Shown: piece after piece, positions 1,977 to 16,410 of the stretch
Position numbering within the stretch: position 1 is the first letter of the stretch
Layout: the number at the start of each line of letters is the position of its first letter
From: Rhodospirillales bacterium
Lineage (GTDB): Bacteria; Pseudomonadota; Alphaproteobacteria; Rhodospirillales; Casp-alpha2
Assembly (NCBI GenBank): GCA_018664265.1
Contig: JABJOR010000230.1
Location: 1-17,510, forward strand
Direction of reading: 5' to 3'
DNA: 17,510 nt
Program-made: the position numbers and the translations under genes
Notes under the pieces: generated by a model
Told to the model about the DNA's origin: nothing
The model's database searches: none
Seen by the model: the letters and a program-made list of their open reading frames with translations, nothing else

Positions 1977-2001
1977 GGAAAGACTCCTTGAGAAAGATAG
2001 A

Positions 2002-2637
2002 TCAGTATGTTGGTGGGGACATAACCCAGACTACACGAGCCGGGGTGTCATCGGGATTGGCCGAGCTGTGGGGCTCCAGGCCGTTAAAAGTCATGGTGTC
2101 GCCTTCTTCCAATATAAAGGTGCGCTCACCAATCCAGACTTGCAGGCGTCCTTCGATAACCAAAGCCGCTTCCTGACAGGGCCGGGCATAAAGCTCTTCG
2201 CCTGTGGTGGCCTGGGGTTCGTACGTGGTCATGATCATTTCAAAATCACCACTCAGATTGGGTGACAGAAGTTCTTCTCTCAAGCCTGATCCGGTGAAGG
2301 TCAAATGACGTCGATTACCGCGCCGCACGATCATATCGCGTTCTTCTTCAGGGCCTTCTGTACGGCCTTGAAAGAACCAGCTGATCTGAACGCCCATGGC
2401 CTCGGCAATTTCTTTCAGACGGTCAATGGCGACGGGAGAAATATTGCGCTCGATTTGCGAGATATAGCCGACAGAACGCCCAAGTTTTTCTGCCAAATCG
2501 GTAATCGTCAAGTTCTGTGCCTTACGCAGGTCGCGGATTTGATCGCCCACAGGGATGCTGCTCAACGAATCATCGTTCGTATCATCGTCAGTATTTGCGC
2601 CGGTTGATGCACTCTGATTGATCTCGCTTGCAGACAT
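2002..2637 (-). CDS. XRE-family transcriptional regulator with C-terminal cupin sensor domain
   Basis: This 211-residue protein has an acidic Ser/Asp-rich N-terminal tail (1-30), a helix-turn-helix of the Cro/CI type (about 32-86, with [18 protein letters not shown] as the recognition region), and a cupin_2 beta-barrel (about 135-205, containing a [11 protein letters not shown] segment). This is the PuuR-like HTH-cupin architecture, whose members usually control an adjacent amine or amino-acid catabolic gene and sense its substrate in the cupin. The oxidoreductase gene follows by 25 bases on the same strand, so that operon is the likely target. The start is ATG 2637, because GGAG (2643-2646) lies five bases upstream. 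An in-frame GTG two codons earlier overlaps that Shine-Dalgarno sequence and is unlikely to be used. The ligand is not predictable. Confidence 0.87.
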
Positions 2638-2751
2638 GAACACTCCAGAGAATGAGGCTGTTTCGTATTTTTCTGAAATGCAGTGTAGAATACAAAAATG
2701 AAAAAATGAAGCTAAAATTTCATTCTAAATAAGTGTTTGTTATCAAAGGCT
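2638..2751 (-). promoter_or_regulatory. Intergenic spacer: presumed promoter of the XRE-cupin operon and weak 3' end of the kinase gene
   Basis: This very AT-rich 114-base spacer separates two same-strand genes. On the minus strand, just past the kinase stop, a short A/T stem (arms 2719-2724 and 2705-2710, loop 2711-2718) is followed by T-runs down to about 2693. That resembles a weak intrinsic terminator, but the stem has only one G-C pair. The promoter for the XRE gene must lie here if the operon is independent; a TATTCT-like hexamer near 2688-2693 is possible, with no convincing -35 box. Both readings are low-confidence inference. Confidence 0.3.
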
Positions 2752-4269
2752 TCAATCGTCATGAGGGGTTCTGGGTAAAATAACCCGAACACACAGGCCT
2801 TTATCCGATATGTTTTCCATAACAATATCACCCCCGTGCGAGCGAATAATGCTGCGCGCGATTGCCAATCCAAGGCCAATTCCGCCCGTTTCAAGGTTTC
2901 GCGACGTTTCTACCCGCACGAATGGCTCAAACACTTGTTCAAGAAATTCAACCGGAATGCCGGGGCCGTCATCTTCAATGGTGATATGAATCGCGTCGTC
3001 CATTACCTTTAATTCAGTCCGGGCGCGTTCGCCATATCGAATGGCATTTTCAATCAGGTTGCGGATGGCCCGTTTCAAGGCAAAGGGGCGACAACGATAG
3101 GGTAAGGACTCTGGTGCCCCTTCTGATACAGTGAAAGAAACATCCTCGCCAAGATCATGCTGGTCCTGTGTAATACTATCAATCAGGGCGGCAAGGTCAG
3201 TCGCGCGGGTGTCTTCCTGATCGGCATCTTCGCGGGCAAAAGCCAGAGTGGCTTCAGTCATGCGCTGCATTTCATCCAGGGATTCCAGAATTTTAATGCG
3301 CACTTCTTCATCGTCAATCATTTCTGCCCGCAGGCGCATTGATGTCAGGGGTGAACGTAAATCATGACTGATGGCAGCCATCATACGAGTGCGATCTTCC
3401 ACAAAACGTTGCAGGCGATCACGCATCTGATTAAAGGCCTGAGTGGTTTTGCGGATTTCAATCGGGCCGCTGTCTTCAAGCTCGGGACCTTTTTCACCGC
3501 GCCCGAGGGCCTCGGCAGCCGTTGCCAGTTTTCCCAAAGGCCGGGTTATCCGGCGGACAACCACAAACGTGACAATACAAACAGCAACACCCATGAGAAC
3601 AAGGGATAACAGTGTTGCATAGGCCCAACCGCCTCTCTTTGACCGTATTTGGTAGGTCGCGTTAAGCCAATTGTTGTTGGCTAGTTGCAGGGACAGGGAT
3701 AAACCGGGGGCTGGACCTGATGGGCGCATATGCCCCGATTTACCAATGCCACCCATTTCCGACATGTGCCTGCCATGCATTTCTTCATCGTCGTCGTCGT
3801 CGTCATCGTCATGGTCATCGTCGTCATCGTCATCGTCATGGTCATCATCGTCGTCGTCGTCGTCATCATCATGGTGACGATTTCGCCATGACCAGAAGTT
3901 GCCACCGTCAAAGGCGACAAGCAAAGGCCTGTCTTGTGGTTGATCGAGCAATCTGATCAATCTTTGGGCGAATGGATTTTCCCGGTGCTCAGAGTTGTTG
4001 ATATCAAGTGAACTTTCCGGGCTAATCCAGAAGCTGAGCTGTACCGTGCTTGCGGCTTCCAATATGCGTTCATGCATGGCGGTCGGGGTTTCACTTAAAA
4101 CGCGCGCAATGCCGGCCACGCGACCAAGAAGCTGTCCGCGTTTTGCTGAAGCCAGAGACATTCTGTGCTCATCAAACAAGATTATTGCGCCGACAATCTG
4201 AGCCACAACCATGGACAGCAATAGCAGTACCATGAGCTGCCCTGCCAAGTTTTTAGGCCACAACTTCAT
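2752..4269 (-). CDS. Sensor histidine kinase (EnvZ-like) with poly-Asp/His extracytoplasmic domain
   Basis: The 505-residue inner-membrane kinase has TM1 at about 11-33, an extracytoplasmic sensor domain at 34-215, TM2 at about 216-238, and HAMP at about 239-290. The HisKA helix carries SHDLRSPLTS (phosphoacceptor H302). The HATPase_c domain shows the N box (NLIENAIRYG), G1 (DDGPGIP) and G2 (GGIGLGLAIA), so it should be catalytically competent. The odd part is residues 132-169: HH, ten Asp, His, eight Asp, His, eight Asp, then EEMHGRHM. This highly acidic run faces the periplasm and should bind cations; Ca2+ or a transition metal is inference. The ATG start overlaps the response-regulator stop by four bases (ATGA), which implies translational coupling and a cognate pair. 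The two TM segments and HAMP match the usual EnvZ-type layout. No named orthologue is recognised. Confidence 0.92.
   Translation of the reverse strand: MKLWPKNLAGQLMVLLLLSMVVAQIVGAIILFDEHRMSLASAKRGQLLGRVAGIARVLSETPTAMHERILEAASTVQLSFWISPESSLDINNSEHRENPFAQRLIRLLDQPQDRPLLVAFDGGNFWSWRNRHHDDDDDDDDDDHDDDDDDDDHDDDDDDDDEEMHGRHMSEMGGIGKSGHMRPSGPAPGLSLSLQLANNNWLNATYQIRSKRGGWAYATLLSLVLMGVAVCIVTFVVVRRITRPLGKLATAAEALGRGEKGPELEDSGPIEIRKTTQAFNQMRDRLQRFVEDRTRMMAAISHDLRSPLTSMRLRAEMIDDEEVRIKILESLDEMQRMTEATLAFAREDADQEDTRATDLAALIDSITQDQHDLGEDVSFTVSEGAPESLPYRCRPFALKRAIRNLIENAIRYGERARTELKVMDDAIHITIEDDGPGIPVEFLEQVFEPFVRVETSRNLETGGIGLGLAIARSIIRSHGGDIVMENISDKGLCVRVILPRTPHDD
3787..3870 (-). repeat. Triplet tract (GAT/GAC) encoding the poly-Asp run with His interruptions
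   Basis: Twenty-eight codons encode D10-H-D8-H-D8, residues 134-161 of the sensor kinase. GAT and GAC are mixed and the His codons are evenly spaced. The tract is therefore not a pure microsatellite, and the amino-acid sequence looks selected. Slippage could still change its length between strains without shifting frame. Seen directly in the sequence. Confidence 0.9.
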
Positions 4270-5006
4270 GCCTCAGTTACCTCTGCCGTAAAACTGTATC
4301 CGCCGCCCCAGTGGGTTTTGATCAGTTTTGGATTTTTTGGATTTTTTTCAATCTTCTTACGCAGGCGGCTGATTTGATTGTCCACGCTGCGATCAAAGGC
4401 GATGGCGTCCCGGCCACGGGTGATGTCCAGTAGCTGATCTCTACTGAGAACCATTCCGGGGCGTTGCAGGAAGGCGCTGAGCAATAAAAATTCACCAGTG
4501 CTGAGTGGGATTGCCACTTTGTCCGGACCGCTGAGTTCCTGCCTTGCACTATCGAGCATCCATTGATCAAAATGCAGGCAAGGCAGGCCCGGTTGTTTGC
4601 GTTGTTGGGGCAGAGTGTTTGCCCGGCGTAGCACGGCTTTGATCCGAGCCAGCAATTCACGCGGGTTAAACGGTTTCGTTATGTAATCGTCAGAGCCCAT
4701 TTCCAGGCCAATGATGCGGTCAGTTTCCTCAGCCATTGCCGTGAGAAGGATAATGGGGATTTGGCTGGTTGCACGTAGTTCGCGACAAAGGCTCAAGCCA
4801 TCCTCACCCGGCATCATGATATCAAGAATAACCAGATCGATAGCTGATGATTTCAAAACCTTCCGGGCGGCATTGGCGCTTTCTGCAAGCGTGATACGAT
4901 AATCATGGCGTGCCAAATAGGCCTTCAGGGAATCACGAATTTCCTTCTGATCATCAACGACCAGAAGGTGATGGCTTTCTTGCAAGGCTCCAACTTCTTT
5001 TATCAT
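4266..5006 (-). CDS. OmpR/PhoB-family response regulator, cognate partner of the poly-Asp kinase
   Basis: This 246-residue protein has a receiver domain (about 12-125) with the acidic pair D18/D19, phosphoacceptor D62 in LDIMMPGEDG, T89 and K111 (TKPF). A winged-helix DNA-binding domain (about 145-240) ends in THWGGGYSF, typical of OmpR-type regulators. The stop overlaps the kinase start by four bases. An open frame extends upstream to a TTG at 5057, but ATG 5006 gives a length and N-terminus matching the second regulator at 6157-6903 (248 residues). No Shine-Dalgarno sequence is visible before ATG 5006; the preceding bases are pyrimidine-rich, so translation may be leaderless or atypical. 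A near-palindrome at 5048-5070 suggests autoregulation. Most residues are identical to the second regulator, so the two probably arose by duplication. Confidence 0.93.
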   Translation of the reverse strand: MIKEVGALQESHHLLVVDDQKEIRDSLKAYLARHDYRITLAESANAARKVLKSSAIDLVILDIMMPGEDGLSLCRELRATSQIPIILLTAMAEETDRIIGLEMGSDDYITKPFNPRELLARIKAVLRRANTLPQQRKQPGLPCLHFDQWMLDSARQELSGPDKVAIPLSTGEFLLLSAFLQRPGMVLSRDQLLDITRGRDAIAFDRSVDNQISRLRKKIEKNPKNPKLIKTHWGGGYSFTAEVTEA

Positions 5007-5343
5007 GGTTACACTATGCACGACATTAAGGGGGGAGTTGAGAAAAAAGTGTAACAAAGTTTGTCACACTATAGGAGGCTTACGAATTGTGACGAAAAAT
5101 TTATGATTTAATATATAAGCTGAAAATCTTGACTCATAAAGTGCGAATAGTGTGCAGCGTTTTATAATGATTAAGAAGCTTCTGTAACTCATAATTATGG
5201 CTGGTTTCGTGCCTAAAATGGAAGTCAGAAGCGAAAATTTAAAAATTGTAATTTTGATTTCCGCTTACAGAGGGCTAAGCGGTCTTAATTCCGTGCAGGT
5301 CAATTAGGTTGATGATGACCATAAATGGAAGTTTGTATATCTA
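5007..5343. other. 337-base AT-rich intergenic region upstream of the regulator-kinase operon
   Basis: No supported gene lies here. The region holds the near-palindrome at 5048-5070, a GTGACG on the plus strand at 5089-5094, and an inverted repeat CCGCTTA/TAAGCGG (5261-5267 and 5276-5282, loop of eight). A TATAGT lies on the minus strand abutting the palindrome (about 5069-5074) and could be a -10 element for the regulator-kinase operon, but no good -35 box accompanies it. The 5261-5282 hairpin has no T-run on either strand, so its role is open. Confidence 0.5.
5048..5070. promoter_or_regulatory. Near-palindromic operator candidate upstream of the response regulator-kinase operon
   Basis: The arms AGTGTAACAAA and TTTGTCACACT flank a central G, with 10 of 11 positions complementary. 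Read on the minus strand it contains GTGACAAA followed 12 bases later by GTTACA. This resembles the tandem GTGACA repeats before the exported-protein gene and the EF-hand operon. It lies about 40 bases before the proposed ATG and just downstream of a TATAGT hexamer, a position that fits autoregulation. A further GTGTAAC lies on the minus strand immediately before the ATG. Binding is inferred. Confidence 0.5.
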
Positions 5344-5366
5344 TCATTTCCAGTCGATATACAAAC
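5331..5366 (-). terminator. Stem-loop at the 3' end of the hypothetical gene, possible weak terminator
   Basis: An 11-bp perfect inverted repeat, GTTTGTATATC (5331-5341) and GATATACAAAC (5356-5366), has a 14-base loop and spans the stop codon of the hypothetical gene. It is A/T-rich and lacks a following T-run on the minus strand, so it may stabilise or end the transcript only weakly. Confidence 0.35.
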
Positions 5367-5886
5367 CAACGTCACCCATAAATCCATTTGGAAAATTGAG
5401 AATTGTTGCCTTTAGATGATAACCCTTGTATTGACCAAGCGCTTTCCATATCAAGTAAAAACTTCTTGCCTTACCTTGCAATGTTTTCGGCCAGTTTTTT
5501 TCTGAGCAGTTTACAGCCCGTCCAGCATCTGTGCAGTAGGCAGAAGGAAAACTCATAACCTCAACTTCATATTCTCCTTTTTTGGCGGCTTTCAAGATCT
5601 TTTGTTCAAGGGTGGAAAAATCATCTTCAAGGAATTTCGCCAGCATGAATTTCCTTTGTTGATCCTCGAACAGCATTTTCATTTTTGTAGATTTAAACTT
5701 TGTGTCTCTTTCCATTTTTCTTTGTGAAATAATGGCATAACGGCGTATTTGTGCGGCAATAATAATACGCTTTACAGACGCCCAATCCTCAGGTGCCGTT
5801 GAAGGTTGCTGCTCAGTCAAGGCCTTTGGATCTGTGCCCGCAAATGAAATGTCATTTAATGATATGTGGAATGAACACATTGCCAT
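5344..5886 (-). CDS. Hypothetical protein, family not recognised
   Basis: The frame encodes 180 residues, or 178 if the second ATG at 5880 is used; that one has GAGA six bases upstream and is slightly better placed. I do not recognise the family. There is no clear signal peptide or membrane helix. The N-terminal half is basic and probably helical (about 38-115, many Lys/Arg/Met/Glu). The C-terminal half contains paired-looking Cys (YCTDAGRAVNC, about 117-127) and a hydrophobic/aromatic tail ending GLYIDWK. The gene is AT-rich and sits between the two similar response-regulator genes, so it could be an insertion after duplication. A minus-strand extended -10 lies upstream at 5922-5927. Coding status rests on the long open frame and promoter context. 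Confidence 0.6.
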   Translation of the reverse strand: MAMCSFHISLNDISFAGTDPKALTEQQPSTAPEDWASVKRIIIAAQIRRYAIISQRKMERDTKFKSTKMKMLFEDQQRKFMLAKFLEDDFSTLEQKILKAAKKGEYEVEVMSFPSAYCTDAGRAVNCSEKNWPKTLQGKARSFYLIWKALGQYKGYHLKATILNFPNGFMGDVGLYIDWK

Positions 5887-6156
5887 TCTCTATACATGAT
5901 TATGGTGGTCTAATTAGTGACATTATAGCAAACGAATGTAAGCACATTATGTCTGTATGTAACTGGATTGTGTCTGAAAATAATAATCACTTTTAATTAT
6001 CTGAGATGGCTGAAAATTGCTACAGGTGGAAGTTCTGACCACTTCCCAATAACATCAGCTTATGGGAAGCAGAGCAAATCTTTGTTATTTCGCACAGAAT
6101 GTGTCATTTAGTTTCCATATTTTGTGTCAATTTACAAAATTCCAAAGAGGCAAAAT
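5887..6156. promoter_or_regulatory. AT-rich spacer with extended -10 promoter candidate for the hypothetical gene
   Basis: On the minus strand, TGCTATAAT (-10 hexamer 5922-5927 with a TG extension) lies about 35 bases before the hypothetical gene's ATG; the -35 region is weak. A small inverted repeat ATTTTGT/ACAAAAT (6119-6125 and 6134-6140) lies downstream of the second regulator's stop and might be part of its transcript end. Nothing else stands out. Confidence 0.4.
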
Positions 6157-6903
6157 TTATTCTGACAAACTATCTGTAACCCGTGCGGTAAAGCTGTATC
6201 CACCGCCCCAATGGGTTTTGATCAGGGTCGGGTTTTTTGGGTCTGGTTCAATTTTTTTTCTTAAGCGGCTGATTTGGTTATCTACGCTTCTATCAAAAAC
6301 GTTGGCTTCACGGCCCCGGGTTATATCCAGAAGTTGATCACGAGTCAGGACCATTGCCGGGCGTTGCAGGAATGCGCTGAGCATAAGAAACTCACCTGTG
6401 CTGAGGGAGATGACTTCACCGTCCTCACGGATTAGCTCGCGCTGGCCGGTGTCAAATTGCCAACCATCAAAATGCAGTCGGGAGACTTCCGGTTGTTGAC
6501 GCTGGGTTGGCAGGGATTGTGTGCGTCGAAGGACAGCTTTGATACGTGCCAATAACTCGCGGGTGTTAAACGGTTTTGTTATGTAGTCATCGGCCCCGAC
6601 TTCAAGGCCAATAATCTTGTCTGTCTCATCGCCCATGGCAGTGAGTAATATAACGGGAATGCTTGAGGTGCTGCGAACTTCTCTACACAAGCTCAGGCCA
6701 TCCTCTCCGGGCATCATGACATCCAGAATAATTATATCGACAACGCTACTTTTGAGAATTTTACGCGCAGAATTTGTGCTATCTGCCAAAGATATACGAT
6801 AACCATGTTGTGTCAGATAACTTTTTAGGGCATCGCGAAATTCCACGTTATCATCAACAATCAGGATGTGGGGTTCTGTGTTTTGGGTGTTTTCAGATGG
6901 CAT
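6157..6903 (-). CDS. OmpR/PhoB-family response regulator, second copy without an adjacent kinase
   Basis: This 248-residue regulator has a receiver domain (about 11-124) with D17/D18, phosphoacceptor D61 in LDVMMPGEDG, T88 and K110, and an OmpR-type winged helix (about 145-240) ending THWGGGYSF. By eye roughly two thirds or more of the residues are identical to the regulator at 4266-5006. The matching stretches include the receiver core (about 64-72), the whole RLRKKIE region and the C-terminal hairpin, so both may recognise the same DNA. All phosphorylation residues are present. No histidine kinase is adjacent, so it probably shares the poly-Asp kinase or responds to an unlinked one. The gene is divergent from the small exported-protein gene, with a 195-base shared control region. 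Its start has only a weak AGAG Shine-Dalgarno sequence. Confidence 0.93.
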   Translation of the reverse strand: MPSENTQNTEPHILIVDDNVEFRDALKSYLTQHGYRISLADSTNSARKILKSSVVDIIILDVMMPGEDGLSLCREVRSTSSIPVILLTAMGDETDKIIGLEVGADDYITKPFNTRELLARIKAVLRRTQSLPTQRQQPEVSRLHFDGWQFDTGQRELIREDGEVISLSTGEFLMLSAFLQRPAMVLTRDQLLDITRGREANVFDRSVDNQISRLRKKIEPDPKNPTLIKTHWGGGYSFTARVTDSLSE

Positions 6904-6937
6904 TTTTTCTCTGTTATCATTAAAAATCTTAAAAAGG

Positions 6938-6957
6938 TGTATCCAAATGTATCAAAT
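6938..6957. promoter_or_regulatory. Tandem 10-bp repeat upstream of the second response regulator
   Basis: TGTATCCAAA and TGTATCAAAT lie head to tail with a 10-base period, 35-55 bases before the regulator's ATG. OmpR-family proteins bind direct repeats with a period near 10-11 bp, so this is a possible binding site. The repeat is short and A/T-rich and may be chance. Confidence 0.3.
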
Positions 6958-6991
6958 GGCATATTTGACAAAAATCGGGACAATTTAGCCC

Positions 6992-7031
6992 TTTATGTGA
7001 CAAAGTTTTGCGACATAAACGGTGTTTTATA
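6992..7031 (+). promoter_or_regulatory. Regulator-dependent promoter candidate for the small exported protein
   Basis: GTGACA (6997-7002) and GCGACA (7010-7015) are direct repeats 13 bases apart. The second ends exactly 10 bases before TTTATA (7026-7031), a -10-like hexamer. No consensus -35 box fits. The same layout precedes the EF-hand operon. The site also sits inside an inverted repeat TTTATGT (6992-6998) / ACATAAA (7013-7019). Tandem repeats replacing the -35 box 10 bp before the -10 box are the known geometry of PhoB-type activation; assignment to the two local regulators is inference. Confidence 0.5.
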
Positions 7032-7098
7032 GAGTTGTGCAAAGCGAAAGCAATTCGAATTTAATTTTACTCAACGTTTACTCAATGGAGATTTTAAA

Positions 7099-7332
7099 AT
7101 GCTTACAACTCTTAAAACCGCGTCACTTTTATCCCTTACAGCTCTTGCTATGGCCAGTGTTGTTGCTCTCTCAACCCCTGCATTCGCAGAAGGTGCTGTT
7201 GATCGAAATCAAACATTTACCAGTCCTTCACAAACGACAGAGGCATCAAGTGTCCAGCTTTCAGAAGCTGCTGTTATGCCTTCAACCAGTTCGGCATTAA
7301 AGTTTGATTGGAGCAACCGGGATCACAAGTAG
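7099..7332 (+). CDS. Small exported protein of unknown function
   Basis: The product is 77 residues, with GGAG eight bases before ATG 7099. Residues 1-30 form a classic Sec signal peptide: a Lys at 6, a hydrophobic core LLSLTALAMASVVAL, and a cleavage site after STPAFA. The mature part, about 47 residues, is Ser/Thr/Gln-rich with no Cys and no predicted helix, and ends KFDWSNRDHK. I do not recognise the family. It is a single-gene unit: its own promoter candidate lies at 6992-7031 and a strong terminator follows 22 bases after the stop. It is divergent from the second response regulator and shares the putative regulator site with the EF-hand operon, so it is probably a co-regulated periplasmic or secreted factor. 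Confidence 0.75.
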   Translation: MLTTLKTASLLSLTALAMASVVALSTPAFAEGAVDRNQTFTSPSQTTEASSVQLSEAAVMPSTSSALKFDWSNRDHK

Positions 7333-7354
7333 TCTTTATCCTTTCTTTTAATAG

Positions 7355-7396
7355 CGGCACTGCTCTGAATGATATTAGGGCAGTGTCGTTTTTTTT
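7355..7396 (+). terminator. Rho-independent terminator of the small exported-protein gene
   Basis: The stem arms are CGGCACTGCTCT (7355-7366) and AGGGCAGTGTCG (7377-7388). They form 12 pairs including two G-U, with a 10-base loop, and are followed directly by eight T (7389-7396). This is a textbook intrinsic terminator on the plus strand. Confidence 0.93.
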
Positions 7397-7432
7397 GTAC
7401 TCACGTCTCTTCACTTTATGGTGTGTGTTCTG

Positions 7433-7467
7433 GAGCGTAATCAGACCTTATAGGTCTGATTGCGTTC
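7433..7467. repeat. Strong 16-bp hairpin between the exported-protein gene and the EF-hand operon
   Basis: GAGCGTAATCAGACCT (7433-7448) pairs with AGGTCTGATTGCGTTC (7452-7467) across a three-base loop. Fourteen pairs are Watson-Crick and two are G-U. There is no T-run on either side, so it is not a typical terminator. It could be an operator, a structured RNA or a transposon-derived relic. Confidence 0.75.
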
Positions 7468-7468
7468 T

Positions 7469-7521
7469 AATTCGTCATAAAGTGTATCAGGTCGGTAAAT
7501 TTCCATAATTTATGACGAATT
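7469..7521. repeat. 13-bp perfect inverted repeat upstream of the EF-hand operon promoter
   Basis: AATTCGTCATAAA (7469-7481) and TTTATGACGAATT (7509-7521) are perfect inverse complements separated by 27 bases. The right arm ends 11 bases before the tandem GTGACA repeat. The TTTATG-GAC core resembles the TTTATGTGAC at 6992-7001, so it may be a further regulator site or a looping arrangement. Confidence 0.65.
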
Positions 7522-7531
7522 CACCCTGTTG

Positions 7532-7566
7532 GTGACAAACCTCCGTGACATTTCTGCGTTTAACTA
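7532..7566 (+). promoter_or_regulatory. Regulator-dependent promoter candidate for the EF-hand/cytochrome operon
   Basis: GTGACA occurs at 7532-7537 and again at 7545-7550, a 13-base period, followed after exactly 10 bases by TAACTA (7561-7566), a plausible -10 hexamer. The first repeat reads GTGACAAA, as at 6997. Transcription would begin near 7573, leaving a leader of about 38 bases. There is no consensus -35 box, as expected for an activator-dependent promoter. Confidence 0.5.
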
Positions 7567-7610
7567 TGGGTATCCGAGATTTTCGGTAATCTAGAAAAAT
7601 GGAGATTGAT

Positions 7611-8168
7611 ATGTCAGAAGTAGAGAAAACCCACAAAAAGAAATCTCACAAAGTTTTGATTGGCCTTGGGGTCGCCGTGCTAATTGGCGGCGCTGCTTAT
7701 GCCGGGTCCAGTTTTGCCGGGCAATCCGGCTGGGGCATGGGGCATGGAATGGGACATGGCATGGGTTACGGCATGGGCAATAATCATATGCAACAAATGT
7801 TTGAAACCATGGATGCCAATCAGGATGGCAAGATCACGGCTGCCGAAATGGAAGCTACCAGAAATCAGCGTTTTTCAGATGCAGATGGTGATGGCAATTC
7901 CATGATCAGCCTTGATGAATTTGAGGGCATGTGGATGAGCCATATGAAACCTCGCATGGTTGACCGGTTCCAGATGCATGACGACGATGGTGATGGCAAT
8001 ATCTCTGCCGACGAAATGACAGAGCATATGTCCAAAATGACGTACTGGATGGACAAGAATAATGATGGCGCTATCGAAAAGGATGAAATCGGCAGGCATC
8101 GCGGAATGATGGGCATGAGAGGTGAGTGCTCAAGATTCGATAATGACGATGATGACGATAAGAGCTGA
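7611..8168 (+). CDS. Membrane-anchored EF-hand protein with Met/Gly/His repeat and acidic tail
   Basis: The product is 185 residues. ATG 7611 is preferred over the in-frame ATG 7599, because GGAG (7601-7604) lies six bases before 7611 and inside the longer frame. A basic N-terminus and one hydrophobic segment (14-37) form a signal anchor or cleavable signal. Residues 41-62 are a repeat of MGHG/MGYG units rich in Met and His, a possible copper or other soft-metal site. Four EF-hand loops follow: 68-79, 90-103, 124-135 and 148-159. Loops 1, 3 and 4 have canonical Asp/Asn at positions 1, 3 and 5, Gly at 6 and Glu at 12; loop 2 is two residues longer. The tail reads FDNDDDDDKS. The protein should bind Ca2+ on the periplasmic side. 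It is the first gene of the cytochrome operon and a likely target of the poly-Asp two-component system. Its role (Ca2+ buffer, sensor or cytochrome partner) is unknown. Confidence 0.88.
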   Translation: MSEVEKTHKKKSHKVLIGLGVAVLIGGAAYAGSSFAGQSGWGMGHGMGHGMGYGMGNNHMQQMFETMDANQDGKITAAEMEATRNQRFSDADGDGNSMISLDEFEGMWMSHMKPRMVDRFQMHDDDGDGNISADEMTEHMSKMTYWMDKNNDGAIEKDEIGRHRGMMGMRGECSRFDNDDDDDKS

Positions 8169-8191
8169 TCATCTTTCATAACAAAATTAAT

Positions 8192-8226
8192 ACTGGGCCT
8201 TCCGGCAAGATCTCGGAAGGCCCAGT
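8192..8226. repeat. 13-bp stem-loop between the EF-hand gene and the cytochrome b gene
   Basis: ACTGGGCCTTCCG (8192-8204) and CGGAAGGCCCAGT (8214-8226) pair perfectly across a nine-base loop. On the plus strand the stem is followed by CAATTAAAGGGG and not a T-run, so it is unlikely to be a full terminator. It more likely limits read-through, marks an RNA processing site or protects the upstream message. That would let the EF-hand gene be expressed more than the cytochromes. Confidence 0.75.
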
Positions 8227-8248
8227 CAATTAAAGGGGAGGGAGGAAC

Positions 8249-9376
8249 ATGAAAACGTCTCAAATTATCTGGGATTTCCCGACACGGGCTTTTCACTGGT
8301 TATTGGTTTTAACGGTTGCCGGAGGCTTGATAACGGGATTTTTGGCGCCGGATTCATGGCTGATGATCCATGTTTGGTTTGGCACGGCCGTTCTGGCACT
8401 GATCACATTTCGCCTGATTTGGGGTTTGGTTGGTTCCTATCACAGCCGATTTTCATCTTTTATATATTCACGGCGTGAAACGCGCGATCACATCCTAGGA
8501 TTGCTAAAAAGAAAGCCCTCAAAGCATTTGGGGCATAACCCCCTTGGAGCGTTGATGATTTTTATTTTGATAGGAACGTTATTGGTAATAACCCTGTCAG
8601 GTTTTGTTGTTCTCGGTGGTGAAGAGAAGCAAGGTCCACTGGCTGGTGTTGTTCCTTATTTTATTGGCAAAGGCGTTGAAGATATACATGAAACCCTTGC
8701 CGGTTTCTTGCTGTTCTTGATTGGCGGGCATTTGTTTGGGGTTGTGGTTGAAAGCCTGCTTTCCAAAGAAAATCTGGCAAAATCTATGGTTACAGGGCGT
8801 AAAGCTATTCCGGATATAGATTCAGATAATACCGATACTGTTAAAGGTGGTGTTCACCGTGGTGTGTCGGTGGCCGGGGTTGTTGGCCTTGTGGTCGTCC
8901 TTGCCTTGTTTTTGATCGGCATTCCAACAATTTCCGGTGCTGTAACAGAAAGCGTAATTCCGACGGATGTTTCCAATACGCAATACAGCACCGAATGCGG
9001 GGATTGCCATCATGCATTTCATCCAAGTCTGTTGCCGAAGGAAAGTTGGTTCAAAATGATGAACGAACTGGATAATCATTTTGGTGAGGATGCATCCCTT
9101 GATGGCAAGGTAGTTCAATCGCTGGAAGCTTTCCTTATAAACAACAGCTCGGAAATTTGGGATACCAGAGCCGCAAATTTGTTCCGCAATGTTAACCCGA
9201 AAAAACCCCTGCAAATTACAGCAACCAAACGGTGGAAGCACATTCATGAAGATGTACCTGATACTGCGTTTCAACATAAATTGGTTGGCACAAAGACCAA
9301 TTGTGCAGGATGCCATAGTGGCACACAAGTTGGCATGTTTGCCGATTATACAGTTCAAATGCCGAAAGGATTCTAA
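8249..9376 (+). CDS. Cytochrome b561-type membrane protein fused to a diheme cytochrome c (DHC) domain
   Basis: The 375-residue protein starts at ATG 8249 behind a strong GGAGG. The N-terminal part (1-180) is a four-helix cytochrome b561/Ni-hydrogenase-type domain with helices at about 13-33, 39-60, 100-122 and 147-170. Candidate heme-b ligands are H16, H41, H147 and H161. A fifth helix (206-229) leads to a periplasmic DHC domain with two heme c sites, CGDCH (250-254) and CAGCH (352-356), and further conserved His such as H277 (NHFGE) that can serve as sixth ligands. In R. sphaeroides and Shewanella the cytochrome b and DHC are, as I recall, separate proteins; here they are joined, which would bring quinol oxidation and electron export onto one chain. 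It is followed by the SHP gene after three bases. The electron acceptor is presumably SHP and/or the free DHC. Confidence 0.9.
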   Translation: MKTSQIIWDFPTRAFHWLLVLTVAGGLITGFLAPDSWLMIHVWFGTAVLALITFRLIWGLVGSYHSRFSSFIYSRRETRDHILGLLKRKPSKHLGHNPLGALMIFILIGTLLVITLSGFVVLGGEEKQGPLAGVVPYFIGKGVEDIHETLAGFLLFLIGGHLFGVVVESLLSKENLAKSMVTGRKAIPDIDSDNTDTVKGGVHRGVSVAGVVGLVVVLALFLIGIPTISGAVTESVIPTDVSNTQYSTECGDCHHAFHPSLLPKESWFKMMNELDNHFGEDASLDGKVVQSLEAFLINNSSEIWDTRAANLFRNVNPKKPLQITATKRWKHIHEDVPDTAFQHKLVGTKTNCAGCHSGTQVGMFADYTVQMPKGF

Positions 9377-9379
9377 GCC

Positions 9380-9796
9380 ATGAAGAAGATTCTCCTATTG
9401 ACTTTAATGTTCACCGGAATGGCGTTTTCAAATGTCTATGCGCAGTCGCCGCAAAGTGTTGTTTTGACATTTTATGAAAACTTGCAACGTGAACAAGCTG
9501 TTGATTTTAAAGGATTTTCATCGGAGCGAGGACAAAACTTATTTGTCTCTGCTTTTTCTGATGGCAAGCCTGATATCCCATCGTGCACCACATGTCATAC
9601 ACCGTCGCCAACCGGTACGGGAAAGACTCGTGCGGGCAAGATTATAGAGCCCATGGCGTTGTCGATTAATAACGCTCGCTATACCGATACCGTTAAGACA
9701 GAAAAATGGTTCCGGCGCAATTGCAAGAGCGTGATGGGGCGAGAATGCACCCCCCGTGAAAAGGGTGATTTCCTCACATTCATGATGGGGCAATGA
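9380..9796 (+). CDS. SHP-type monoheme cytochrome c (DUF1924 family)
   Basis: This 138-residue periplasmic protein has a signal peptide at 1-21 (cleavage after NVYA-Q). The heme site is CTTCH (69-73), with H73 as proximal ligand. The C-terminal part, EKWFRRNCKSVMGREC (108-123), matches from memory the conserved region of R. sphaeroides SHP, where an Asn next to a Cys is the unusual distal heme ligand. Here that Asn is N114, and C115/C123 could form the disulfide known near the SHP heme. In SHP the Asn leaves upon reduction and the open heme binds O2 or NO; the physiological substrate is not firmly known to me. It starts three bases after the cytochrome b-DHC gene, with AAAGGA upstream, so it is tightly co-transcribed and is probably the terminal acceptor of that chain. 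Confidence 0.9.
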   Translation: MKKILLLTLMFTGMAFSNVYAQSPQSVVLTFYENLQREQAVDFKGFSSERGQNLFVSAFSDGKPDIPSCTTCHTPSPTGTGKTRAGKIIEPMALSINNARYTDTVKTEKWFRRNCKSVMGRECTPREKGDFLTFMMGQ

Positions 9797-9832
9797 TCCA
9801 TTGTTTTTAATAAAATATAACAGGAGTTTAAA

Positions 9833-10297
9833 ATGAGGTTTTCTTTTATTGCAGTATCCCTTGGTGTTTTGTTCGGCGCATCAGCGCAGGCCGATGATGA
9901 TGTTTATCCCGTGGTGAGTGATCCACTTACCGCGTCGGCTTGTGGAGAATGTCATATGGCATTCCAGCCGCAGATGCTGCCTGCAAGGTCCTGGAAAGCT
10001 ATCATGCAGGGCCTTGATAATCATTTCGGCGAGGATGCAACTGTAGACACTATGGCGGTTTCAAAGATAGAAAGTTATCTGGTCGCCAATGCAGGAGATG
10101 TGGGCTGGGACAATGAAATTTTGCGCGGCGTCAGTTCTTCATCCACACCTTTGCGTATTTCCGAATTACCAAAGTGGATTGATGAACACGATGAAGAATT
10201 GCCGGCAAATGTCTGGTCCCGTGCCGATGTCGGCTCGAAAGCAAATTGCCGGGCCTGTCACCGTGCAGCGGACAAAGGATATTATGACGACGATTAA
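9833..10297 (+). CDS. Periplasmic diheme cytochrome c (DHC family)
   Basis: This 154-residue protein has a signal peptide at 1-20 (cleavage after SAQA-D), and AGGAG lies six to seven bases before ATG 9833. It has two heme c sites, CGECH (37-41) and CRACH (139-143). Other conserved His (H64 in NHFGEDA, H119 in DEHDE) fit bis-His coordination, as in DHC of R. sphaeroides. It is clearly homologous to the C-terminal domain of the cytochrome b protein encoded upstream; both contain a LDNHFGEDA-type segment and MLP/LLP-x-SW. The operon therefore holds two DHC units, one tethered and one soluble. The mature protein starts DDD and ends YYDDD. The stop lies three bases from the end of the convergent aldolase gene, with no terminator between them. 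Confidence 0.9.
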   Translation: MRFSFIAVSLGVLFGASAQADDDVYPVVSDPLTASACGECHMAFQPQMLPARSWKAIMQGLDNHFGEDATVDTMAVSKIESYLVANAGDVGWDNEILRGVSSSSTPLRISELPKWIDEHDEELPANVWSRADVGSKANCRACHRAADKGYYDDD

Positions 10298-10300
10298 GGG

Positions 10301-12334
10301 TTATCGTAACGCCGCCGCTATGTTGCCGCCATCAACGGTGATAATGGCTGCGGTGGTGCTTTCCGCCAAGGCCAGATCAACAAAGGCCTGGGCCACATCA
10401 TCGGCGGTGACTTCGCGCTTCAACAGGTTACCGCCCATGTAATCAGCCTCTGACAAGCCACGGGATTTGGAACGTGAGGCAATCATTTGATCGTCCAGTA
10501 AACCTGAGCGAATACGGTCTGCATTTACCGCGTTGGAGCGAATGCCATCAGCCCCGTGATCCAGCGCGTACTGGCGCATCAGGAACAGGGTTGCTGCTTT
10601 CGGCAGGCCGTAAGGGCCAAAGTTTGCCCCCGGATTGACGGCTTGTTTGGAGGTGTTGAACAACAGGCACCCTCCAACTCCTTGCGCACACATGATTTGG
10701 ACGGCCGCTTGTGAAACGGCCTGATGGGACCAGAAATTCAACTCAAAACTATTACGTAAGACATCATCGCTCACCTCACCGATCTTGCCTTGCCATGCAG
10801 CCCCTGCATTAGAGACAACCATGTCCACGCCGCCATAAGTTTTGCAGATGGTGTTGAAAGCTGCAGCAACACTCGCTTTGTCTGTGACATCACAACCAAT
10901 CGCCAGACCACCAATTAGGCCAGCAACTTTTGCCGCTGCGCCGCTGTCGAGATCAAGCACACAGACTTCTGCACCTTGCGTTGCAAAGGCTTTTGCAGTC
11001 GCAGCACCAATGCCAGAGCCACCACCCGTCACAGCGACGATTTGACGGGCCAGTGGTTTCTCGCTGGTTTTGGATAATTTGGCTTGTTCCAGTGACCAGT
11101 ATTCCAGATCAAATGTGTCACGCTCGACAATGCAATCGTAGCTGCTCATGCCTTCTGCGTGGCTGATGACCTCGACGTTTGTTTCTGCAAGGTCAGCCGC
11201 GATGCGGGCCGCCTTGGCACTGTTTCCAAGACCGAATAATCCCAAACCCGGAACCAGAATGACCCGTGGCATGGGGTCTAGTTCCACCTTCTTGATTTTT
11301 TGACGCGCATTGTTACGCTTGAAATAAGCATGGTATTCGGCCTCATAGGCCGCAACGGATTTTTCTACGCTGGCTTTAAATGCATCCAGCTTCCCAGCCT
11401 GCGGTGCAGGGACAATTAGCGGGCGGTGTTTGGTGCGAATAACATGATCGGGTGTAACCGTCCCGCGTTGGGAGTATCGCGCAATGTCTTTGCCATCCAC
11501 ATAGGTGCGAACGGTTTTGGATGTGCGGAATTCCAGGATAAGGGATTTGGATTTGAAGCTGGTGGCTCCGCGCAGGATTGGTGCTACGTCTTCGACGCAT
11601 GCAATTTTCTTTGGCAGGGTTTTGGCCTTGATGGGTTTTTTGGCGTTGGCCTTGATATATTTTTCAGCCATGGAGACCAGCTTGATCATCCGTGAATAAG
11701 CTTGTCTGGCCGTATCGCCGAAGCTGAAAATACCATGGTTGAGCAGCACCAGCCCTTCGACTTTGGGGTTTGCATCAAACACCTGTGATGCAGCCTTCGC
11801 CAAATCGAAGCCCGGCATGATATAGGGAACGTAACCAACTTTATCGCCATAAACCTCACGGCAGATTGCTTCACCGTTGGGTTGATCGGTCAGGGCAAGA
11901 ACCGCATTGGCATGGGTGTGATCAATAAATTTGTGGGGCAGGAATGCATGCAACAATGTTTCAACCGATGGATTGGGCGAGCTGGCATCCAGCAAATTGA
12001 CCCGTTGTGCATTTACCATATCTTCGTCGCTGAGTTTCTTAAGTGCGATCATGGATTGTAATTCAGCCAATCGAACAGCGGGAAGACCTGCGGGTTCAAT
12101 ATCCCCCATGTCCCAGCCGCTACCTTTGACGCACAGCACCGGCGTCGGGTTTCCCATGAAATCAGCGACCTCTGTCTTGCACGACGTATTGCCACCCCCA
12201 TGCAGGACCAACGAAGGCACATTACCCAAAAGCCGCGTGGTGTATGTCCTCAGCGCCAGATCTTCGTTCACACCTTGCTTGGCATAATGGCGGATGGCGG
12301 CTTTGGCGTCTTTGTCAGACCACAGGTTTTTCAT
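10301..12334 (-). CDS. Bifunctional class II aldolase / short-chain dehydrogenase (RhaD-like)
   Basis: The protein is 677 residues, the usual length of this fusion family. The N-terminal part (about 1-400) is a class II aldolase/adducin domain with GGGNTS (46-51) and HTH (139-141) contributing zinc ligands. The C-terminal part (about 425-677) is a short-chain dehydrogenase with TGGGSGIGAA for NAD binding and a YGLPK catalytic Tyr/Lys motif. Related fusions cleave rhamnulose-1-phosphate and oxidise the lactaldehyde product, but no other rhamnose gene is nearby, so the sugar substrate is uncertain and I give no symbol. The gene lies downstream of an mmsA-type gene on the same strand, but a terminator at 12401-12434 separates them. 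Its Shine-Dalgarno sequence (AAGAGAA) is modest. It converges on the DHC gene with three bases between stop codons. Confidence 0.88.
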   Translation of the reverse strand: MKNLWSDKDAKAAIRHYAKQGVNEDLALRTYTTRLLGNVPSLVLHGGGNTSCKTEVADFMGNPTPVLCVKGSGWDMGDIEPAGLPAVRLAELQSMIALKKLSDEDMVNAQRVNLLDASSPNPSVETLLHAFLPHKFIDHTHANAVLALTDQPNGEAICREVYGDKVGYVPYIMPGFDLAKAASQVFDANPKVEGLVLLNHGIFSFGDTARQAYSRMIKLVSMAEKYIKANAKKPIKAKTLPKKIACVEDVAPILRGATSFKSKSLILEFRTSKTVRTYVDGKDIARYSQRGTVTPDHVIRTKHRPLIVPAPQAGKLDAFKASVEKSVAAYEAEYHAYFKRNNARQKIKKVELDPMPRVILVPGLGLFGLGNSAKAARIAADLAETNVEVISHAEGMSSYDCIVERDTFDLEYWSLEQAKLSKTSEKPLARQIVAVTGGGSGIGAATAKAFATQGAEVCVLDLDSGAAAKVAGLIGGLAIGCDVTDKASVAAAFNTICKTYGGVDMVVSNAGAAWQGKIGEVSDDVLRNSFELNFWSHQAVSQAAVQIMCAQGVGGCLLFNTSKQAVNPGANFGPYGLPKAATLFLMRQYALDHGADGIRSNAVNADRIRSGLLDDQMIASRSKSRGLSEADYMGGNLLKREVTADDVAQAFVDLALAESTTAAIITVDGGNIAAALR

Positions 12335-15571: not shown

Positions 15572-16410
15572 GTGGTGAATCTGTAGAGCATTACAAAAAT
15601 CATGGAAGCTGGACCAATCCTGGGCAGTTTGATTTGTTAATTAAGCCTTTGCCAGATGATGTTGAGGCACTCGCCCATGTTGTACAGAATCTCTTTATTC
15701 ACAGTGATTATATATCTTTATACGGCCTTGAAGATGAAGACTTTCTATCTTCTTCGCGTGGTACGCTATCAATTGAATCTCGGCTGAAGAACATTGTTGC
15801 CACCAATAAATCACCCCTTGAAGTAAATCGATGTCCACAAGAACGCACATTCACCACGTGTCGTGATTATGCCTTAATGCTATGCTCGTTCTTACGAGAG
15901 AAAGATTATTCTGCGAGAGTCCGATGCGGGTTTGCGACATATTTTGAAGACAATAAATATGAAGATCATTGGGTTTGTGAATATTGGAATGCTAAGAGTA
16001 AATGTTGGTGTATTGCGGATGCTCAACTTGATGGTGAGCACTGTGCTTATCTATTGATAGATTTCAATACTGTGGATATTCCTTTGGATAAATTCCTTTT
16101 ATCTGGATATGCATGGAAACAATATCGATCTGCCTCAGTTGAGGCTTCCATATTTGGACATGGTGATTCAACAGGACCCATGTTTCTGGTAATTAATTTG
16201 GTACGTGATTATTTAGCTCTGCGAAATCAAGAAGCTTCAATTTGGGACACATGGAGAGATTTGTTGCCGTTTGAAGAGAGGCTTGATTCCACAATATTGA
16301 CCTGTTGCGACAATTTGGCTGATGTAATTCTGAATGTTGATATTGAATTTAAGAATTTGATTCTCGCACAAGAAAATATTGATGCCATGTATGAATTAAT
16401 TTGGAAATAG
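15568..16410 (+). CDS. Transglutaminase-like cysteine protease/peptidase-fold protein
   Basis: The product is 280 residues and its ATG overlaps the MocR stop. The transglutaminase-like domain (about 65-160) has the catalytic triad in order: C98 (TFTTCRDYALML), H134 (EDHWVCEYW) and D151 (IADAQLD). No signal peptide is visible, so it acts in the cytoplasm. Such proteins cleave or transfer amide bonds; here the substrate is unknown. Coupling to a MocR regulator is unusual and may point to an amide or amino-acid conjugate in the same pathway as the mmsA gene. The gene is more AT-rich than its MocR neighbour, which could indicate separate acquisition. The C-terminal 110 residues (about 170-280) are not recognised and look helical. 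It converges on the kinase gene with two bases between stop codons. Confidence 0.8.
   Translation: MSGESVEHYKNHGSWTNPGQFDLLIKPLPDDVEALAHVVQNLFIHSDYISLYGLEDEDFLSSSRGTLSIESRLKNIVATNKSPLEVNRCPQERTFTTCRDYALMLCSFLREKDYSARVRCGFATYFEDNKYEDHWVCEYWNAKSKCWCIADAQLDGEHCAYLLIDFNTVDIPLDKFLLSGYAWKQYRSASVEASIFGHGDSTGPMFLVINLVRDYLALRNQEASIWDTWRDLLPFEERLDSTILTCCDNLADVILNVDIEFKNLILAQENIDAMYELIWK

What the first reader, a model, noticed from the sequence alone, without database searches (positions are those of the whole stretch)
2752..10297. Candidate cation-responsive system joining a poly-Asp kinase, twin regulators, an EF-hand protein and an SHP/DHC cytochrome chain
Within 7.5 kb lie a kinase with a 26-Asp extracytoplasmic run, two near-identical OmpR-type regulators, a small exported protein, a four-EF-hand membrane protein with an acidic tail, and a cytochrome b-DHC fusion, SHP and DHC. 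Shared tandem repeats at two promoters tie the regulators to the exported protein and the cytochrome operon. Known: SHP, DHC and cytochrome b form a set in some proteobacteria, and Ca2+-responsive two-component systems exist (CarSR in Vibrio/Pseudomonas). Inference: here a divalent cation controls a ligand-binding heme chain.
Basis: partly seen in the sequence, partly recalled or inferred. Interest (0 to 1): 0.75.

Follow-up and report, generated by a model that had tools for sequence, protein, structure and literature searches.

The report
EF-hand two-component locus with cytochrome operon
A conserved bacterial sensor system paired with a secreted calcium-binding-type protein has, in this genome, gained a second regulator and a neighbouring operon for an oxygen- or nitric-oxide-binding type of heme protein, which suggests, but does not prove, that a metal-ion or envelope signal controls that heme chain.

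Summary
The genes described are real, with corrections: the regulators are 72% identical, and the 26 Asp form three blocks split by His. The 7.5 kb is a mosaic, not one conserved system. (1) An EnvZ/OmpR-like kinase-regulator pair facing an exported EF-hand gene is conserved: 14 of 20 fetched relatives' loci; 18 of 78 assessable named loci, against no multi-EF ORF in 986 kb of flank. The kinase's Asp/His-rich loop is a variable trait of the clade; here it is near the long end. (2) Matrices built from relatives' intergenic sites alone rank the expected window promoters first and second, though the EF-hand site is only modestly above chance. (3) Same-genus G001 keeps the flanking order but lacks the second regulator, two orphan genes and the SHP/DHC/cytochrome b operon here. 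That operon is a diverged second copy; no other listed genome has both close together. Most reported SHP operons carry one of three kinase types (PMC2909971); this kinase lacks the SK1 motifs and fails the QseC cut-off. Most likely a cation/envelope-sensing regulon that gained an SHP operon. Ca2+ as signal, regulator binding and read-through are inferences.

The parts
2752..4269 (-). EnvZ-like sensor histidine kinase; residues 132-184 hold an Asp/His-rich, low-confidence (probably disordered) loop with 26 Asp in three blocks, inside an otherwise confidently modelled sensor domain
   Evidence: Pfam HAMP/HisKA/HATPase_c; AF2 pLDDT under 50 at 132-137 and 139-184, about 90 for residues 51-120, overall pTM 0.43; Asp/His-rich loop in many relatives
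4266..5006 (-). OmpR-family response regulator RR1, overlapping the kinase start by 4 bp
   Evidence: 84% to G001's regulator
5049..5068 (+). regulator-proximal site GTGTAACAAAGTTTGTCACA upstream of RR1; overlaps an inverted repeat that the terminator scan also lists (5070-5048, minus strand)
   Evidence: 2nd best window hit of the relatives-only matrix, 15.8, expected 0.017 per 17.5 kb
5344..5886 (-). orphan gene, 180 aa, AT-rich (GC 0.398)
   Evidence: no Pfam/NCBIfam match; found in 1 of 41 genomes, its own; GC
6157..6903 (-). second OmpR-family regulator RR2, no kinase of its own next to it; sister of the RR1 lineage
   Evidence: 72% to RR1; groups with RR1 plus G001's regulator, 94/87
6937..6956 (+). 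regulator-proximal site GTGTATCCAAATGTATCAAA
   Evidence: best window hit of the relatives-only matrix, 23.0, 0 in 60 shuffles
6998..7015 (+). EF-proximal direct-repeat site TGACAAAGTTTTGCGACA (half-sites 13 bp apart) at the exp77 promoter
   Evidence: best window hit, 23.8, 0 in 60 shuffles; only zero-mismatch match to the derived pattern in the 3.28 Mb genome
7099..7332 (+). exp77: 77-aa protein with signal-peptide-like N-terminus, orphan
   Evidence: no homologue besides itself, cluster on 13 contigs; in 41 genomes only its own and a marginal hit (E 0.0097, G019)
7353..7396 (+). intrinsic terminator after exp77 (16-pair stem plus T-run)
   Evidence: z -5.79
7533..7550 (+). EF-proximal direct-repeat site TGACAAACCTCCGTGACA at the EF-hand promoter
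   Evidence: 2nd best window hit, 17.2, expected 0.067 per 17.5 kb; 2 mismatches to the derived pattern, as at two other genome places
7599..8168 (+). exported four-EF-hand protein, Met/His/Gly-rich N-terminal part, acidic tail (alternative start 7611)
   Evidence: Pfam EF-hand families over cut-off; four loops; similar gene beside the regulator in relatives
8192..8226 (+). 14-bp GC-rich intercistronic hairpin without T-run between EF-hand and cytochrome genes
   Evidence: -32.8 kcal/mol, z -4.43; not in the terminator list
8249..9376 (+). cytochrome b561 - membrane diheme cytochrome c fusion (CytB/mDHC)
   Evidence: PF01292 and PF09626
9380..9796 (+). SHP (sphaeroides heme protein, DUF1924); keeps residues aligned with W84 and N88 of R. 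sphaeroides SHP
   Evidence: PF09086; alignment to 1dw0, residue numbers counted by hand from the chain positions shown
9833..10297 (+). soluble diheme cytochrome c (DHC)
   Evidence: PF09626; 2fw5 at 3.8e-36

Best explanation
A conserved kinase/OmpR-type regulator pair senses a divalent cation, or an envelope state set by cations, through an EnvZ-type sensor domain carrying an acidic/His-rich loop. It controls a small exported EF-hand protein that binds and buffers the ion. In this lineage the regulator was duplicated (RR2), the intergenic control region exists in several partial or full copies so that both exp77 and the EF-hand gene carry the site, and an extra SHP operon settled directly behind the EF-hand gene. 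Transcription from the EF-hand promoter probably runs on, past an intercistronic hairpin, into cytochrome b-DHC, SHP and DHC, so a quinol-to-SHP electron chain with an O2/NO-binding type of heme became part of the regulon. Shown here: gene identities, the conserved neighbourhood, conserved sites, the difference from G001, second-copy status. Inferred: that RR1/RR2 bind the sites, activation rather than repression, that the signal is a cation, read-through into the cytochrome genes, and the function of SHP here.
For: EF-hand gene divergent from regulator and kinase in 14 of 20 fetched loci; of the other six, two contigs begin at or within the gene pair (L016, L057), two have a small Met/His-rich exported protein (L058, L060), one a cytochrome c' gene (L061) and one (L047) no such gene found. 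18 of 78 assessable named loci have an ORF with two or more EF loops within 1.6 kb upstream of the regulator, and none of their ORFs further than 3 kb away do (986 kb). Relatives-only matrices rank the four expected promoter sites first and second. The stretch RSVDNQISRLRKKIE, in which the DNA-recognition helix should lie (recalled for OmpR-type proteins), is identical in RR1 and RR2. Same gene order in G001 without RR2, orphans and cytochrome operon. GC 0.398-0.495 in the added genes against 0.507-0.532 in the conserved flank genes xre, kinase, RR1, aldolase/SDR, aldehyde dehydrogenase; EF-hand 0.481. No canonical terminator in the 80-bp EF/cytochrome gap. Two more members of this regulator clade face a b561-type cytochrome gene: L061 (cytochrome c' plus b561) and L091 (small exported protein plus b561).
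Against: No expression data. No site of its own was found for the cytochrome operon, the hairpin could end or weaken transcription, and a promoter-like 9-of-12 match lies at 8115-8144 just before the gap (the scan as a whole finds 12 against 10.7 +/- 3.0 in shuffles). Co-location is unique to this genome among the rows listed. Other members of the clade have Met/His-rich exported partners instead of EF-hands (by eye), which fits copper, iron or peptide stress as well as Ca2+. 9 of 20 fetched kinases have no run of four Asp (plus for L058). Low GC is not confined to the added genes: the 280-aa gene and second kinase at the right end have 0.384 and 0.431. The EF-hand site is only modestly above chance.
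Confidence: 0.55

Rival explanations
1. Two unrelated neighbours: the conserved kinase/regulator/EF-hand system is real, but the SHP operon merely landed behind it and is transcribed and regulated on its own.
For: Operon absent at this locus in G001, placed elsewhere in other genomes, in several near a different OmpR-type kinase/regulator pair; strong hairpin between EF-hand and cytochrome genes; a promoter-like match at 8115-8144; no conserved site directly in front of 8249.
Against: Same strand, 80 bp gap, no canonical terminator there; promoter-like matches as many as in shuffles; two other members of this regulator clade have a b561-type cytochrome gene facing them.
Confidence: 0.33
2. The signal is a transition metal (Cu, Fe2+, Zn, Ni) or cationic envelope stress rather than Ca2+; the EF-hand or Met/His-rich exported protein is a feedback binding protein, as CpxP is for CpxA (recalled).
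For: His alternates with Asp in the loop; exported partners next to this regulator type look Met/His-rich by eye in Aeromonas, Photobacterium and two relatives, and without EF-hands in Thalassospira and an Oceanospirillaceae MAG (none of those scanned has a Pfam match); the window's EF-hand protein has a GMGHGMGHGMGYGMG stretch; kinase core closest to CpxA in Foldseek.
Against: Four EF loops with Ca2+-type ligands here; ExxxE not conserved; heavy-metal kinase model CztS/SilS/CopS 132.1 of 292.55 bits required; the UzcR U/Zn/Cu site quoted in PMC8963506 (CATTAC-N6-TTAA) differs from this one.
Confidence: 0.4
3. The long poly-Asp run is a slippage expansion without sensing function in an ordinary EnvZ-type kinase.
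For: Codon-repeat DNA; very variable length in relatives, no run of four Asp in 9 of 20.
Against: An acidic/His-rich stretch recurs before the conserved WLN motif: best 30 residues with 12 or more D/E/H in 15 of 20 by script, 16 if L058, which the script anchored wrongly, is read by eye; 26 of 33 protein hits have a run of four or more Asp, but that search was seeded partly with Asp-rich words and is biased.
Confidence: 0.25
4. Assembly artefact: the genome is a draft MAG-like assembly of 603 contigs and the locus is a chimera.
For: Draft, 78.4% complete, 2.51% contamination.
Against: G001's order holds on both sides and through the middle; the orphan exp77 is on 13 contigs in the protein database.
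Confidence: 0.03

Closest known systems
SHP / DHC / cytochrome b operon with linked sensor kinase (Meyer et al. 2010, PMC2909971; passages seen)
   Same: CytB/mDHC chimera, SHP and soluble DHC; SHP keeps W84 and N88; a kinase/regulator pair nearby.
   Different: The paper describes three kinase types for those operons that have one (SK1 with SGVYWQ/RSRSLWD motifs and Orf1, SK2 QseC-like, SK3 of Campylobacter/Arcobacter). This kinase lacks the SK1 motifs and scores 99.5 of 475 bits for QseC; SK3 was not compared. An EF-hand gene precedes the operon.
EnvZ/OmpR two-component systems
   Same: Best NCBIfam matches of kinase (222.7 bits) and regulators (253.1 and 260.3 bits).
   Different: All below the equivalog cut-offs (415 and 331); the partner is an exported EF-hand protein.
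CarSR/BqsRS of Pseudomonas (PMC12666569; passages seen)
   Same: Kinase/regulator pair linked to cations.
   Different: The kinase's ExxxE is not conserved; the term EF-hand does not occur in that paper's text.
UzcRS of Caulobacter (PMC8963506; passages seen)
   Same: Alphaproteobacterial metal-responsive pair that controls many exported or membrane proteins.
   Different: Reported UzcR site CATTAC-N6-TTAA differs from YGACAWACTTYTGYGACA; UzcR binds widely, whereas here only four genome places match the derived pattern within 2 mismatches.
CpxAR with CpxP (recalled)
   Same: Envelope sensor whose regulon includes a small periplasmic feedback protein; CpxA cytoplasmic structures lead the Foldseek list.
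   Different: Partner here has EF-hands; CpxA model 176.9 of 486 bits.

Membership tests
SHP operon (SHP, CytB, DHC) | DUF1924 heme protein with CxxCH | tested here: met
   PF09086 117.6 bits, cut-off 22.5; CTTCH in sequence
SHP operon (SHP, CytB, DHC) | residues equivalent to W84 and N88 (O2-binding type) | tested here: met
   alignment with 1dw0
SHP operon (SHP, CytB, DHC) | CytB and one or two DHC beside SHP on the same strand | tested here: met
SHP operon (SHP, CytB, DHC) | linked kinase of type SK1 | tested here: not met
   no SGVYWQ- or RSRSLWD-like motif in residues 1-225
SHP operon (SHP, CytB, DHC) | linked kinase of type SK2 (QseC-like) | tested here: not met
   99.5 bits, cut-off 475
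SHP operon (SHP, CytB, DHC) | linked kinase of type SK3 | not tested
   no SK3 sequence was compared
SHP operon (SHP, CytB, DHC) | O2 or NO binding, electron transfer from quinol | not testable with these tools
   biochemistry
OmpR/PhoB-type two-component system | kinase with HAMP, HisKA, HATPase and regulator with REC plus winged helix, adjacent | tested here: met
EnvZ/OmpR proper | equivalog cut-offs of NF007004 and NF007005 | tested here: not met
   222.7 of 415; 253.1 and 260.3 of 331
heavy-metal kinase CztS/SilS/CopS | TIGR01386 cut-off | tested here: not met
   132.1 of 292.55
BqsS/CarS-type iron sensor | Exx(x)E motif in the periplasmic domain | tested here: inconclusive
   window kinase has one ExxxE (residue 67), not conserved over 27 aligned kinases, and one ExxE (residue 94) that was not traced
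EF-hand Ca2+-binding protein | EF-hand Pfam over cut-off and 12-residue loops with acidic ligands | tested here: met
   EF-hand_1, _5, _6, _7 over cut-off; four loops
EF-hand Ca2+-binding protein | binds Ca2+ | not testable with these tools
   needs protein
lanmodulin | NF053806 cut-off | tested here: not met
   32.6 of 135 bits

The most novel reading that the evidence does not exclude
An undescribed, broadly conserved proteobacterial cation-homeostasis circuit: a kinase that reads extracytoplasmic Ca2+ (or another divalent ion) with a disordered poly-Asp/His loop controls a secreted EF-hand buffer protein through a conserved 13-bp-spaced direct repeat. This circuit repeatedly recruits heme/cytochrome b561 chains (cytochrome c' in one relative, SHP/DHC here), so that cation level gates an O2/NO-handling heme pathway.
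Probability: 0.25. Interest if true: 0.7.

Novelty: new variant of a known kind. Interest (0 to 1): 0.5.

Why it matters
If the linkage holds it adds a kinase type to the three reported for SHP operons, a heme system whose physiological role is still open in the paper seen (PMC2909971), and gives a testable inducer class for it. Independently, the kinase/regulator/EF-hand pair looks like a common signalling unit; no paper on it appeared in the listings (open-access library only; listings read, not the papers). Genetically defined bacterial Ca2+ sensors are few (recalled), and the conserved promoter site would make the regulon predictable in cultivable alphaproteobacteria.

Tried and rejected
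Rfam search of 2600-10400: no match up to E 0.5. Foldseek of the full kinase model in PDB: the 50 listed matches are mainly kinase cytoplasmic parts (CpxA first) and say nothing about the sensor domain. Trees of cytochrome b-DHC, SHP and DHC do not resolve the source of the window's operon except DHC with G048 (99/95); some rows (G042, G046, G060) have very long branches. Homology search for exp77 found only itself; the 180-aa orphan was not sought in the protein database. Own-genome pattern search at 3 mismatches is below its control (26 forward and 15 reverse against 35 and 26), so only the four matches at 0-2 mismatches are considered, two of them outside the window (C260, C592; not followed); the pattern was derived partly from the window, so with relatives-only matrices is the better test. 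The relatives' sites were picked by eye; L059 and L055 (identical to L054) were left out of the EF-proximal matrix (12 sites), L055 out of the RR-proximal one (13 sites). In one search other hits of similar score exist: 15.6 at 15935 and 13.9 at 5741 (EF-type, both inside genes) and 16.2 at C161 1575-1594 (RR-type, inside a DHC gene); they were not counted as promoters. UzcRS, lanmodulin and heavy-metal kinases were considered and rejected as families. PMC12864828 was searched for passages and not used. The 96-base stretch 7405-7500 with a large hairpin is single-copy in the genome, so a repeat element is not supported. Two literature searches returned nothing.

Full report
What is there. The window is contig C15 of a draft genome (3.28 Mb, 603 contigs, 78.4% complete). 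Genes in order: Xre-cupin regulator 2002-2643(-), kinase 2752-4269(-), RR1 4266-5006(-), orphan of 180 aa 5344-5886(-), RR2 6157-6903(-), exp77 7099-7332(+), EF-hand protein 7599-8168(+), cytochrome b561-DHC 8249-9376(+), SHP 9380-9796(+), DHC 9833-10297(+), then an aldolase-II/SDR fusion and an aldehyde dehydrogenase on the minus strand. RR1 and RR2 are 72% identical over 234 aa.

Half one: a conserved sensor/EF-hand unit. The kinase was sought in 61 genomes (its own and 60 relatives); 44 have a match at E 1e-60 or better. I looked at wider DNA for 20 matches (L043-L061 and L016), which are the 22 best besides the window's own, without G051's and the second one of G006. In 14 of the 20 a gene similar to the window's EF-hand protein is divergent from the regulator. 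Of the six others, L016 and L057 begin at or within the gene pair, L058 and L060 have a small exported Met/His-rich protein, L061 has cytochrome c' followed by cytochrome b561, and L047 has none found and an interrupted-looking regulator. Among 80 named loci found with an alignment of six regulators, 78 had enough upstream DNA to assess and 18 have an ORF with at least two EF loops within 1.6 kb upstream of the regulator; no such ORF lies further than 3 kb from the regulator in 986 kb. EF-hand genes stand there in Sphingomonas, Methylobrevis, Xanthobacter and Loktanella among others.

The kinase loop. In the AF2 model (27 sequences, mean pLDDT 79.5, pTM 0.43) residues 51-120 of the sensor domain score about 90 and 132-184 mostly under 50. 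Of the 20 fetched kinases 10 have a run of at least four Asp in the 90 residues before the WLN motif by script, 11 with L058, which the script anchored wrongly. In the protein search 26 of 33 hits (two of them short fragments without the loop) have such a run, but that search was seeded partly by Asp-rich words and over-represents them. The window has 31 Asp in the domain; P0131 has 36 and P0152 33. So the run is near the long end of a variable family trait, not a unique invention.

The sites. Relatives' regulator/EF-hand intergenic regions hold two recurrent elements: TTGTAACnnnnTGTnnCA near the regulator and YGACAWACTTYTGYGACA near the EF-hand gene (read by eye). Matrices made only from relatives (13 and 12 sites) rank window positions 6937 (23.0) and 5049 (15.8), and 6998 (23.8) and 7533 (17.2), as first and second; 60 Markov shuffles give 0, 0.017, 0 and 0.067 hits per 17.5 kb at those scores. 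The next EF-type hit (15.6, at 15935 inside a gene) is close to the 7533 score, so that site is supported by its position as well as its score. The RR2/exp77 region carries both elements, the EF-hand promoter the EF-side element, RR1 the regulator-side element. The own genome's second SHP operon (C161) has no EF-side element. The stretch in which the DNA-recognition helix should lie is identical in RR1 and RR2, so both probably bind the same sites; this is inference.

Half two: an added cytochrome operon. G001, the other genome of the genus, has FAD protein, Xre-cupin, kinase, regulator, EF-hand, aldolase/SDR and aldehyde dehydrogenase in the same order with 51-82% identity, but RR2, the two orphans and the cytochrome operon are missing there and two other genes stand between EF-hand and aldolase/SDR. 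The added genes have GC 0.398-0.495 against 0.507-0.532 in the conserved flank genes; but the EF-hand gene is 0.481 and two genes at the right end are 0.384 and 0.431, so GC is weak evidence. The window's cytochrome b is 43% identical to C161's. C161's and G001's copies pair in the tree (99/98) inside a four-row group (99/99) that leaves the window's copy out; its place is otherwise unresolved, except that its DHC groups with G048 (99/95). RR2 branches next to RR1 plus G001's regulator (94/87, just under the tool's mark), so the duplication may predate the split of the two genomes with loss in G001; faster change of RR2 or acquisition is not excluded.

Are the halves one regulon? The EF-hand and cytochrome genes are 80 bp apart on one strand. 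No terminator-like match lies between them, but there is a 14-bp GC-rich hairpin (-32.8 kcal/mol, z -4.43), and a weak promoter-like match (9 of 12) sits at 8115-8144 in the end of the EF-hand gene; in the region scanned such matches are no more frequent than in shuffles. exp77 by contrast ends in a good terminator (7353-7396). Read-through is therefore plausible and unproven. In 21 of the 61 genomes both a kinase match and DUF1924 are present; they are close together only in the window (by eye; in the single-contig genomes G007, G019 and G052 they are 0.2, 1.1 and 1.8 Mb apart, while contig breaks limit the others). In 297 genomes of the order, 112 have DUF1924 and 209 an RR1 relative at E 1e-75; by eye no listed pair besides the window's is within 20 kb (nearest 72 kb, G072), but the listing of regulator matches was cut. 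Two other members of the regulator clade do face a b561 cytochrome gene: L061 and L091. This suggests a recurring tie, on two cases picked while reading the neighbourhoods.

Comparison with what is known. Meyer et al. 2010 (PMC2909971; passages seen) report that the majority of SHP operons carry one of three kinase types, SK1, SK2 or SK3, while some, as in R. sphaeroides, carry none, and treat SHP as an oxygen-binding heme protein with reported NO dioxygenase activity. The window's SHP keeps the equivalents of W84 and N88. Its kinase lacks the SK1 motifs and fails the QseC (SK2-type) model; SK3 was not compared. It may thus be a further sensor type for this operon, if the operon is really under it. 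For the kinase/EF-hand pair no description appeared in the listings; the library holds only part of the literature and the listed papers were not read.

Verdict. The robust result is a conserved kinase/regulator/EF-hand unit with recurrent sites in its control region, apparently undescribed. The attachment of a heme chain was seen only in this genome and needs one transcript test. Ca2+ is a reasonable but untested ligand.

Noticed in passing
L006 (G000:C161) 906-6700: A second SHP operon (cytochrome b-DHC, SHP, two DHC) lies divergent from what looks by eye like a ferredoxin-reductase gene, a membrane protein and a multiheme cytochrome whose C-terminus is HDDDDDDD.
   Followed up: partly
window 7412-7484: Large near-perfect hairpin between exp77 and the EF-hand promoter (z -7.15 for 7400-7520); single copy in the genome.
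   Followed up: partly
L061 8301-9412: In an order-level relative (same locus as L102, MAG BP5.bin101) the same regulator/kinase clade faces cytochrome c' plus cytochrome b561 instead of an EF-hand gene.
   Followed up: yes
L091 8827-9794: Oceanospirillaceae MAG: small exported-looking protein plus cytochrome b561 on one strand, divergent from a regulator 60% identical to RR2.
   Followed up: partly
L090, L103, L104: In Aeromonas, Photobacterium and Celerinatantimonas the small exported-looking gene next to this regulator type is Met- and/or His-rich by eye; L090 and L103 have no Pfam match, L104 was not scanned.
   Followed up: partly
L062, L064, L065, L071: SHP operons of several relatives stand opposite a different OmpR-type regulator/kinase pair (26-29% to the window's); whether it is the QseC-like SK2 of PMC2909971 was not tested.
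   Followed up: no
window 15568-16410: 280-aa protein overlapping the MocR-type regulator gene by 4 bp, no Pfam match, GC 0.384; looks transglutaminase-like by eye.
   Followed up: no
window 5344-5886: AT-rich orphan gene between RR1 and RR2, absent from 40 other genomes searched.
   Followed up: partly
G000:C260:1956-1973 and C592:2607-2624: Two further genome places match the derived regulator pattern with 2 mismatches; their neighbours were not read.
   Followed up: no
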